Source: Bdellovibrionales bacterium (GTDB taxonomy: Bacteria > Bdellovibrionota > FAC87 > UBA2466). Taken from it: DNA of 43,533 nt. The position numbers and the translations under genes are program-made. How positions within the stretch are numbered: the first letter of the stretch is position 1; every line of letters begins with the position of its first letter. The notes under the pieces are model-generated. The model did not search any database. It saw only the letters and a program-made list of their open reading frames with translations, and was not told where the DNA came from. The stretch is taken from positions 1 through 43,533 of the forward strand of contig SXPJ01000088.1 of NCBI GenBank assembly GCA_005776395.1, written 5' to 3'. Positions 10,105-12,224 of the stretch are shown in pieces.

Positions 10105-10700
10105 TGAATTTTTCTGAAAACTATATTCAAGAAAGCATCTCTCTTCTCAAAGATTTAGATACTCACTCGATTGAAAATATGGTGAACGGCTTGAGCCGAG
10201 TAAGAAACAATGGAGGGCGACTCTTTATTTTAGGAGTAGGCGGCTCAGCAGGACACGCAAGCCATGCGGTCAATGACTTTAGAAAGATCTGTGATTTTGA
10301 GTCTTATACCCCCACAGACAATGTTTCTGAACTCACCGCAAGAGTAAATGATGAAGGTTGGGACACCGCTTTCTCTGAGTGGCTTAAAGTCTCTAGAATT
10401 AGTTCTAAAGATGCAGTTCTAGTTTTCTCCGTAGGGGGTGGAAACCGTGAAAAAAATATTTCGGTAAATTTAGTTAAGGCTTTAGAGCTTTCTAAAGATG
10501 TGGGGGCCGCGATTTTTGGAATTGTGGGAAAAGATGGGGGCTTCACTAAAACAGTTTCTGAAGCCTGTGTAGTCATTCCCTCAGTCTCTTCTGAACGAAT
10601 GACTCCTCACACAGAGGGTTTTTGTGCTGTGGTATGGCATCTATTGGTAAGCCATCCTGCCCTTAAAAAAACGATGACTAAGTGGGAATCGGTGAAATAA
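10101..10700 (+). CDS. SIS-domain phosphosugar isomerase, GmhA-like
   Basis: 199 residues, the length of sedoheptulose-7-phosphate isomerase GmhA. The phosphosugar site GVGGSAGHASHAV and LTARVNDEGWDTAFSEWL follow the GmhA order (GGS...A..H, LTA..ND). The 'StSGnS' loop reads VFSVGGGNREKN. The usual metal-binding pair HxxxE reads HAVND, and the C-terminal Q-E-x-H helix is replaced by TPHTEGFCAVVWH, so this is a divergent subgroup whose substrate may not be sedoheptulose-7-phosphate. Start ATG overlaps the transaldolase stop, which implies translational coupling. Confidence 0.82.
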   Translation: MMNFSENYIQESISLLKDLDTHSIENMVNGLSRVRNNGGRLFILGVGGSAGHASHAVNDFRKICDFESYTPTDNVSELTARVNDEGWDTAFSEWLKVSRISSKDAVLVFSVGGGNREKNISVNLVKALELSKDVGAAIFGIVGKDGGFTKTVSEACVVIPSVSSERMTPHTEGFCAVVWHLLVSHPALKKTMTKWESVK

Positions 10701-10708
10701 CTCCAAGT

Positions 10709-11698
10709 ATGTACCGAGTTGGGATCATAGGTGCAGGGCTTATCGGAGCTAAACGCGCAAAAGCGTTAAGACCTTGCGATAAACTTATAGCCGTTGCTGA
10801 TCTGTCTCACGAACGGGCCGTCACTCTAGCAACCACTTACGGTGCCCAGGTGGAATCTTCATGGGAAACCCTGATCCAAAGAAAAGAGATAGATATCGTC
10901 GTTATTGCTACTTCTAATAATGCAATTCCAATTTGCGCTACCGAGGCTCTTAAAAAGGGCAAACATATTTTGATTGAAAAGCCAGGAGGTAGGAATCCTA
11001 GTGAATTAAAACCCCTACTAGAACTTTCTAAAAAGACTCAGAAGACTGCTAGAGTTGGTTTTAATCACCGTTTTCATCCCGCCATGCTCAAAGCTAAAAG
11101 CATGCTTGAGGAAGGGGCTATTGGTGAACTCATGTACATACGAGCCCGTTATGGCCATGGGGGGCGAATAGGCTACAATCAAGAGTGGCGAGCCAATCCT
11201 GAAATCTCTGGAGGAGGAGAGCTGCTCGACCAGGGAGTTCATCTTATTGATCTATGCCGGTGGATGGGGGGGGAATTTTCCTTAGATGTAGGTCGAGTTC
11301 ACACTTTTTACTGGAATATGCCTGTTGAGGATAATGGATTTCTTATTTTAAAATCTCCAGATCAAAAGCGTTTTGCGCATCTTCATGCAAGCTGTACTGA
11401 ATGGAAGAACCTCTTTGATTTTGAAATCTTTGGAAAAAAGGGCAAGCTCCAAATTTGGGGATTGGGACGCAGCTATGGAACTGAGGAGTTAAGATATTAC
11501 AAAGTAAAACCTGAAATGGGAGTCCCAGAACTTACCTCTTTTTCTTTTCCAGAAGAGGATCAATCCTGGAATCTTGAATGGTCAGCCCTTATTGATAGTA
11601 TCGAAGGCAAACAGGCCCCCATTAGCACTCTAGAAGATGCTTTTAAAGCTCTAGAGATCGTTTATTCAGCTTACGAGCAATCAGGACTTAAGTTTTAA
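10709..11698 (+). CDS. Gfo/Idh/MocA family oxidoreductase
   Basis: 329 residues. NAD(P)-dependent sugar dehydrogenase fold: Rossmann motif GIIGAGLIGAKRAKAL at the start, ATSNNAIP strand, the catalytic EKPGGRNP, and the C-terminal sheet with GGGELLDQGVHLIDLCRWMGGE, where the Asp-x-x-x-His pair is typical. ATG 10709, 8 bases after the SIS gene stop, is preferred over an upstream GTG. Third gene of the sugar operon; it may oxidise or epimerise the product of the first two. Its last four codons (CTT AAG TTT TAA) form most of the target duplication of the adjoining inserted element. Confidence 0.88.
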   Translation: MYRVGIIGAGLIGAKRAKALRPCDKLIAVADLSHERAVTLATTYGAQVESSWETLIQRKEIDIVVIATSNNAIPICATEALKKGKHILIEKPGGRNPSELKPLLELSKKTQKTARVGFNHRFHPAMLKAKSMLEEGAIGELMYIRARYGHGGRIGYNQEWRANPEISGGGELLDQGVHLIDLCRWMGGEFSLDVGRVHTFYWNMPVEDNGFLILKSPDQKRFAHLHASCTEWKNLFDFEIFGKKGKLQIWGLGRSYGTEELRYYKVKPEMGVPELTSFSFPEEDQSWNLEWSALIDSIEGKQAPISTLEDAFKALEIVYSAYEQSGLKF

Positions 11699-11941
11699 TA
11701 CCTGGCACCCTACACTGTATTTTTTAGAAAATTTTTTGGTTCAGTCTCTCTACACAATATCTGGAATAGTAAGTATTTAATGAGCAGACTGCGCGGGCTA
11801 GAACTTCGACAGAGTAAGGGAATTTACTTTTTTAAGTTTAGGTGACATTTTGTTTGCCAAAACAGCCCAAGAATTTAAATGGCTTGTAAGGCAAACAAGA
11901 CCAAAAAATTTTCTAAAAAATACAGTATAGGGTGCCAGGTA
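11699..11941. mobile_element. MITE-like element, 42-bp terminal inverted repeats
   Basis: Left end 11699-11740 begins TACCTGGCACCC and right end 11900-11941 ends GGGTGCCAGGTA. The two 42-base arms match as inverted complements at 41 of 42 positions (C/T difference at 11713). The element is flanked by an 11-base direct repeat TTAAGTTTTAA (11688-11698 and 11942-11952), a target duplication that includes the stop codon of the oxidoreductase gene. The 159-base interior has no convincing gene, but holds a 9-base inverted repeat TTGTTTGCC / GGCAAACAA. Total 243 bp. It has no transposase, so it would depend on one encoded elsewhere. Confidence 0.85.
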
Positions 11942-11987
11942 TTAAGTTTTAAAATTCTTTCGTATTGAATAGTTGCTGTTTTTTTAT

Positions 11988-12224
11988 CTAGCACATTCGA
12001 CGACATCGAGACTGGCATCGAACTCGAGTCACTGTGTGACAGCGAACTTTTCTAGCGCATCGAGCCCTAGGCCGAACACATCTTCTAGCACAGGGTCTTG
12101 CAGACTGACGAACTGGAGCACAACCATGGCTTCCCCTTGCTATCGCAGCCTCAGGAATCATAAAGCCAAGGGCCAAGGTTAATAATAAAAAAGCTTTAAC
12201 TGTCTGACTTTTCAAACTAATCAC
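11988..12224 (-). CDS. Secreted Cys/Arg-rich cationic peptide
   Basis: 78 residues from a GTG start at 12224 with a strong GGGGGAG ribosome site. A signal peptide (VKAFLLLTLALGFMIPEAAIA) leaves a mature part of about 49 residues containing 8 Cys and 15 Arg, no Asp and no Glu. The Cys are spaced in Arg-rich blocks (CARRC, RARCARKVRC, VRCQSRCRRMC) and the last residue is Cys. Eight cysteines could form four disulfides. No family recognised; it resembles defensin-like or nucleic-acid-binding secreted peptides by composition only. It lies just beyond the MITE-like element, with an A-rich stretch (revealed as T-rich on plus) after its stop. Confidence 0.65.
   Translation of the reverse strand: MISLKSQTVKAFLLLTLALGFMIPEAAIARGSHGCAPVRQSARPCARRCVRPRARCARKVRCHTVTRVRCQSRCRRMC

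What the first reader, a model, noticed from the sequence alone, without database searches (positions are those of the whole stretch)
11688..11952. 243-bp MITE-like element inserted on a stop codon, with 11-bp target duplication
42-base inverted ends (41/42 match) flanked by the direct repeat TTAAGTTTTAA. The left copy is the last codons plus TAA of the oxidoreductase gene, so the insertion left that protein unchanged. The interior carries a subterminal inverted repeat. I cannot assign it to a known family.
Basis: seen in the sequence. Interest (0 to 1): 0.65.

Follow-up and report, generated by a model that had tools for sequence, protein, structure and literature searches.

The report
Stop-codon-seeking mini-transposon family
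The 245-base hairpin element is a small, gene-less jumping element that borrows the ends of an IS1-like transposon, and this whole transposon group lands with striking preference exactly on the stop codons of genes, so it spreads without breaking proteins.

Summary
Confirmed and extended. The host, an uncultured Bdellovibrionales-type bacterium, has about 18 full or partial copies; young ones are 99.3% alike. Uninserted copies of another repeat family in the same genome serve as exact empty sites. None of 58 relatives searched, including 5 congeners, has the MITE.

The same genome holds an intact 1149-bp IS with matching ends (17-18 of 22), a 9-bp duplication and a 302-aa transposase remotely related to IS1 (43 bits, cut-off 100). 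It, or a decayed sister IS (19-20 of 22), most likely mobilises the MITE in trans.

The surprise is the landing site. The IS completes the stop codons of both flanking tail-to-tail genes. Of 35 complete IS copies from 16 genomes, 29 have a gene ending within -8..+10 bp of an end (null about 8%), 11 at both ends. Seven E. coli IS1 copies do not. The MITE is ordinary; the gene-end insertion habit is the interesting part. Whether it reflects targeting or selection is open.

The parts
10682..11698 (+). Gfo/Idh/MocA oxidoreductase gene (338 aa); stop codon TAA 11696-11698 is completed by the first base of the element
   Evidence: Pfam GFO_IDH_MocA 2.1e-19; ORF list
11689..11697 (.). left 9-bp target duplication TAAGTTTTA
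   Evidence: sequence; same register in IS C103, C7, C6/C44 and repeat-X sites
11698..11942 (.). the MITE, 245 bp, ATACC...GGTAT
   Evidence: boundaries from alignment of copies and from filled/empty sites
11698..11739 (+). left terminal inverted repeat, 42 nt
   Evidence: 41/42 identical to the reverse complement of the right arm
11901..11942 (-). right terminal inverted repeat, 42 nt
11742..11791 (+). interior hairpin 1 (AGTCT...AGACT), conserved in sequence between copies, without compensatory pairs
11797..11843 (+). interior hairpin 2
11943..11951 (.). right 9-bp target duplication TAAGTTTTA

Best explanation
The element is a non-autonomous MITE mobilised in trans by an IS1-related transposase that recognises the shared ends ATACCTGGCMCC...ATACTGT. 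Shown: it is multi-copy, its ends match an intact IS in the same genome, both make 9-bp target duplications, and a recent burst produced near-identical copies. Inferred: the transposase encoded by that IS (C103) or its now decayed sister (C79) does the cutting and joining. The IS group, and the MITE with it, inserts at the 3' ends of genes, often at tight or overlapping tail-to-tail junctions. The target is AT-rich and roughly TTA-N5-TAA, which is what two overlapping facing stop codons look like. Duplicating 9 bp and adding one base from each element end gives each gene its own copy of the shared 11 bp, so both proteins stay unchanged. Whether the transposase actively seeks such sites or only the harmless insertions survive is not settled; I favour a contribution of target preference on top of selection.
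For: Copies: about 18 places; 14 young fragments, mean identity 99.3%. Intact IS with the same ends: TIR 98% over 41 nt; duplication TATTCCTTA; MITE right end 18/22 to C103 IS, 20/22 to C79 IS. Exact empty sites: repeat X reads GGTAATTTTATGATG when empty and TAATTTTAT|ATACC or GGTAT|TAATTTTAT when filled. Absent in 58 relatives. IS1 relation: all 13 aligned group members hit NCBIfam IS1, the partner IS below the cut-off. Gene-end insertion: own genome 9 of 27 element ends within -1..+10 bp of a stop, 6 with the stop completed by the element; congeners and G010 16 of 30 ends; phylum-wide 29 of 35 complete IS with at least one and 11 with both ends at a gene end, against simulated 6-8% and 0.3% or less. 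Neighbour genes are real and end with complete Pfam domains: PrkA, SerA with ACT domain, FAD-oxidase, MacB/FtsX. E. coli K-12 IS1 copies, 7 of 7, do not sit at stop codons of annotated genes, leaving aside the 42-codon ykgS.
Against: No transposition was observed. The interior of the MITE has no counterpart in the IS, so it is not a simple internal deletion of that IS. Only one intact parent copy exists, and its ends differ from the MITE's at 4-5 of 22 positions. The gene-end pattern was noticed first and tested afterwards, gene calls are simple ORFs, and nearly half of convergent pairs in this genome are tight (31 of 65); with that per-junction null the both-ends excess falls to P about 1e-4. 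The 11-bp dyad consensus rests on few sites with a full duplication, and several older IS copies show no clear duplication.
Confidence: 0.88

Rival explanations
1. The element is a structured RNA or 3'-end regulatory hairpin (terminator or mRNA stabiliser) that spread as a useful part and is maintained for its RNA.
For: Very stable fold; copies lie at gene 3' ends; the terminal stem keeps pairing through 11 pairs changed on both sides.
Against: Double changes are confined to the terminal inverted repeat; the interior hairpins show 0-1. No Rfam family at gathering score. No intrinsic terminator signature. Target duplications, empty sites and a same-ended IS are not expected of an RNA gene. Absent in all congeners.
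Confidence: 0.06
2. The insertions are random, and only those at gene ends survive purifying selection in a compact genome; no target preference exists.
For: Targets are AT-rich without a strict motif; tight tail-to-tail junctions are common in this genome (31 of 65 convergent pairs).
Against: Among non-disruptive positions only about 5% lie within -1..+10 bp of a stop on one side, against 16 of 30 congener and G010 ends. Weighting by the target motif raises exact-stop hits only to 3%, against 4 of 16. Both-ends excess remains under a per-junction null. IS1 in E. coli does not show it.
Confidence: 0.3
3. The transposase targets terminator hairpins or other palindromes behind genes, as some IS target REPs.
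For: Insertion close behind genes; two of eight reconstructed empty sites fold better than shuffles (z -2.8 and -2.9).
Against: The other six empty sites, including the window and C103, have no hairpin (z -1.1 or weaker); the insertion point is at the stop itself rather than 20-40 bp behind it.
Confidence: 0.1

Closest known systems
Bacterial MITEs (Correia elements, RUP, ERIC, MITEAba12; review PMC10969869)
   Same: Short, no gene, long inverted ends, target duplication, multi-copy, mostly intergenic, presumed mobilised by a resident IS
   Different: New family; 9-bp duplication; insertion flush with stop codons. The term 'stop codon' does not occur in the main text of that review
IS1 family (NCBIfam NF033558)
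   Same: Zinc-ribbon-like N-terminus and catalytic region related to the IS1 model (aligned over residues 37-160); about 9-bp duplication
   Different: Single 302-aa frame instead of insA/insB; scores 43 of the 100 bits required; different ends; gene-end insertion not seen in 7 K-12 IS1 copies
IS that target REP palindromes (PMC1525189, abstract only read)
   Same: IS sparing genes by choosing intergenic sites
   Different: Target here is the stop codon region, with no consistent palindromic repeat at the empty site
Tn7 (attTn7 behind glmS; own knowledge)
   Same: Insertion at a gene 3' end that leaves the protein intact
   Different: Tn7 uses one gene and a dedicated target protein; here many unrelated genes and a single transposase gene

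Membership tests
MITE | short element without transposase gene and with terminal inverted repeats | tested here: met
   245 bp, 42-nt ends 41/42; no ORF of 100 aa or more lies within it
MITE | dispersed multi-copy | tested here: met
   about 18 places
MITE | target site duplication and empty site | tested here: met
   9 bp; repeat X empty sites
MITE | ends shared with an autonomous element in the same genome | tested here: met
   C103 IS 17-18/22, C79 decayed IS 19-20/22
MITE | actual mobility in trans | not testable with these tools
   needs a transposition assay
IS1 family (for the partner IS) | transposase above the curated IS1 model score | tested here: not met
   43 bits against 100; all 13 relatives match the model at E 0.01 or better
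IS1 family (for the partner IS) | 8-9 bp target duplication | tested here: met
   TATTCCTTA at C103; AACAATTTA at G072 C23
IS1 family (for the partner IS) | two overlapping frames insA-insB (classical IS1; own knowledge says single-frame groups exist too) | tested here: not met
   single 302-aa frame
IS1595 family (for the partner IS) | DDE_Tnp_IS1595 domain | tested here: not met
   one of 13 members at E 0.055, partner IS none
Structured RNA (Rfam) | match at gathering score | tested here: not met
   only sub-threshold hairpin look-alikes

The most novel reading that the evidence does not exclude
An IS1-related transposon group widespread in the phylum (Bdellovibrionota by my reading) has evolved to target stop codons and overlapping tail-to-tail gene junctions: its 9-bp duplication plus one base from each end regenerates both stop codons, so insertion separates overlapping genes without changing either protein, and MITEs of the group inherit this safe landing.
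Probability: 0.5. Interest if true: 0.78.

Novelty: new variant of a known kind. Interest (0 to 1): 0.62.

Why it matters
Transposons that avoid harm usually do so with dedicated target proteins or by hitting repeats. A one-gene IS that lands on stop codons of many unrelated genes would be a simple and general safe-site strategy, directly testable by insertion mapping, and possibly useful as an insertion tool that leaves coding sequence intact. It also gives a concrete explanation for how repeats can build up in a gene-dense genome.

Tried and rejected
Local chance was ruled out by copies and fold scores. Rfam gave only sub-threshold microRNA and snoRNA look-alikes. The orthologous gene in congeners is MITE-free, but downstream synteny is broken, so it is not an exact empty site; the convergent gene next to it in congeners was not found in this genome, a search without a positive control. 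A hairpin or terminator as the target was tested on eight reconstructed empty sites and not supported. The worry that neighbouring genes are merely truncated by the insertion, with a stop supplied by the element, was tested by in-silico insertion and by domain completeness of neighbours and does not explain the pattern. A control with DDE_Tnp_1 (IS4-type) transposases in the same genomes failed because none was found there. Plasmid and phage collections hold no relative of the transposase at E 1e-5. Paper searches gave no match for MITEs of this kind in Bdellovibrio. One search failed on wrong coordinates.

Full report
Observation. The window holds an oxidoreductase gene (10682-11698; Pfam Gfo/Idh/MocA) directly followed by a quasi-palindrome. 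Folded alone, the strand beats every one of 200 shuffles. Comparing copies puts the ends at ATACC...GGTAT, 11698-11942, with a 9-bp duplication TAAGTTTTA. The stop codon TAA (11696-11698) consists of two bases of the duplication and the first base of the element.

Copies. The host genome (2.76 Mb, 106 contigs) is related to Bdellovibrionales MAGs. It has about 18 places similar to the element. Most are cut at contig ends, as expected for a repeat that breaks a short-read assembly. The young subfamily is 99.3% identical on average over 51 comparisons; the window copy, C13, C7 and a truncated copy at C41 are older (about 85%). 58 relatives, five of them congeners, have no copy.

Empty sites. A second dispersed repeat (called X here; about 40 matches) contains GGTAATTTTATGATG. 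In C14, C12, C64 and C57 the MITE sits in this very site, with TAATTTTAT on the side that is assembled. This gives the 9-bp duplication and shows that nothing else was gained or lost. Halves at C6 and C44 share CAGATTTAT and may be the two sides of one insertion.

Partner IS. A decayed transposase remnant near one end-match led to an intact copy at C103:32881-34029: 1149 bp, inverted ends 98% over 41 nt, one ORF of 302 aa, duplication TATTCCTTA. The MITE ends match this IS at 17-18 of 22 and the decayed C79 IS at 19-20 of 22; the interiors are unrelated. Congeners G002 and G005 carry many ends of the same type, in part with transposase fragments. The transposase hits the NCBIfam IS1 model at 4.7e-11 but at 43 bits against a cut-off of 100; all 13 aligned group members match that model. 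Invariant D126 and D209 are likely catalytic; the third residue may be N257 by position relative to IS1, which is inference from the alignment and from memory of IS1.

Arms. The two arms of the window copy agree at 41 of 42 positions but agree with arms of other copies at only 31-36. Eleven pairs of the terminal stem have changed on both sides, while interior hairpins have almost none. The arms therefore evolve in concert. I infer correction of one arm from the other in the hairpin, or joint selection for transposase binding, rather than an RNA under structural selection.

Mini-palindromes. At C5 and C102 30-bp palindromes (ATACCTGGCAC-xCTATAGx-GTxCCAGGTAT) carry duplications matching at 8 of 9 positions; C87 has a 25-bp form. 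They look like elements that lost everything between two CTATAG motifs, one in each arm, by slippage across the hairpin; this is inference.

Landing at gene ends. The IS at C103 lies between two tail-to-tail genes and completes the stop codon of both. The C3 IS of G005 does the same. In the own genome 9 of 27 element ends lie within -1..+10 bp of an ORF end, 6 with the stop completed by the element; in congeners and G010 16 of 30; the null for non-disruptive AT-rich positions is 5%. For 35 complete IS copies of the group in 16 genomes, 29 have a gene end within -8..+10 bp at one end or both, and 11 at both; simulated insertions give 6-8% and 0.03-0.33%. Removing two orthologous pairs leaves 27 of 33 and 10 of 33. 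Under a stricter per-junction null, in which 31 of 363 junctions are tight convergent ones, the both-ends excess still has P about 1e-4. Flanking genes are real: complete SerA-ACT, FAD-oxidase, PrkA and MacB/FtsX domains run to near the last residues, so they are not truncated products. Seven IS1 copies of E. coli K-12 do not show the pattern for annotated genes of ordinary size; one of them lies at the 3' end of the 42-codon ykgS, which I left out.

Mechanism. Target duplications fit an AT-rich dyad, roughly TTA-N5-TAA including one base beyond the duplication on each side. Two convergent genes overlapping by 11 bp present exactly this. Duplicating the middle 9 bp and adding A/T from the element ends gives each gene a full copy. 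Weighting by this motif raises the expected share of exact stop hits fivefold to 3%, still short of the 4 of 16 seen. Hence target preference and selection probably both act; the relative weight is open. Hairpins at empty sites are not a general feature.

Verdict. The MITE is a new family of a known kind. The gene-end insertion of its IS group is the part I would follow up. I found no description of it in the papers searched, but the library is partial and ISfinder was not available.

Noticed in passing
L120:1501-1730 and about 40 further places in the genome: A second dispersed repeat of about 230 bp with ends CAGCAGTTCTCGGTGA / TCACCGRGAACTGCTG and an inner 38-bp inverted repeat, no Rfam match. 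Several copies are entered by the MITE.
   Followed up: partly
L075 (C5), L076 (C102), L074 (C87), L077 (C55): 25-31 bp mini-palindromes made only of the element's two outer ends, three with near-matching duplications; possible slippage remnants or minimal elements.
   Followed up: partly
window 11988-12224 (-): Small ORF of 78 aa with a signal-like N-terminus and an Arg/Cys-rich tail, ending 45 bp from the right end of the MITE.
   Followed up: no
L113-L117: In five congeners the oxidoreductase gene is followed tightly by a convergent ORF (about 500 aa where complete in the stretch held) that was not found in the window's genome; in three of them the two genes overlap at their ends.
   Followed up: partly
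15 genomes of the phylum: No DDE_Tnp_1 (PF01609) transposase in any of them, although they carry the IS1-like group; these genomes may be poor in other IS.
   Followed up: no
L254 (G034 C12): IS flanked by an inverted repeat of host sequence (AACTCCA / TGGAGTT), unlike most other sites.
   Followed up: no
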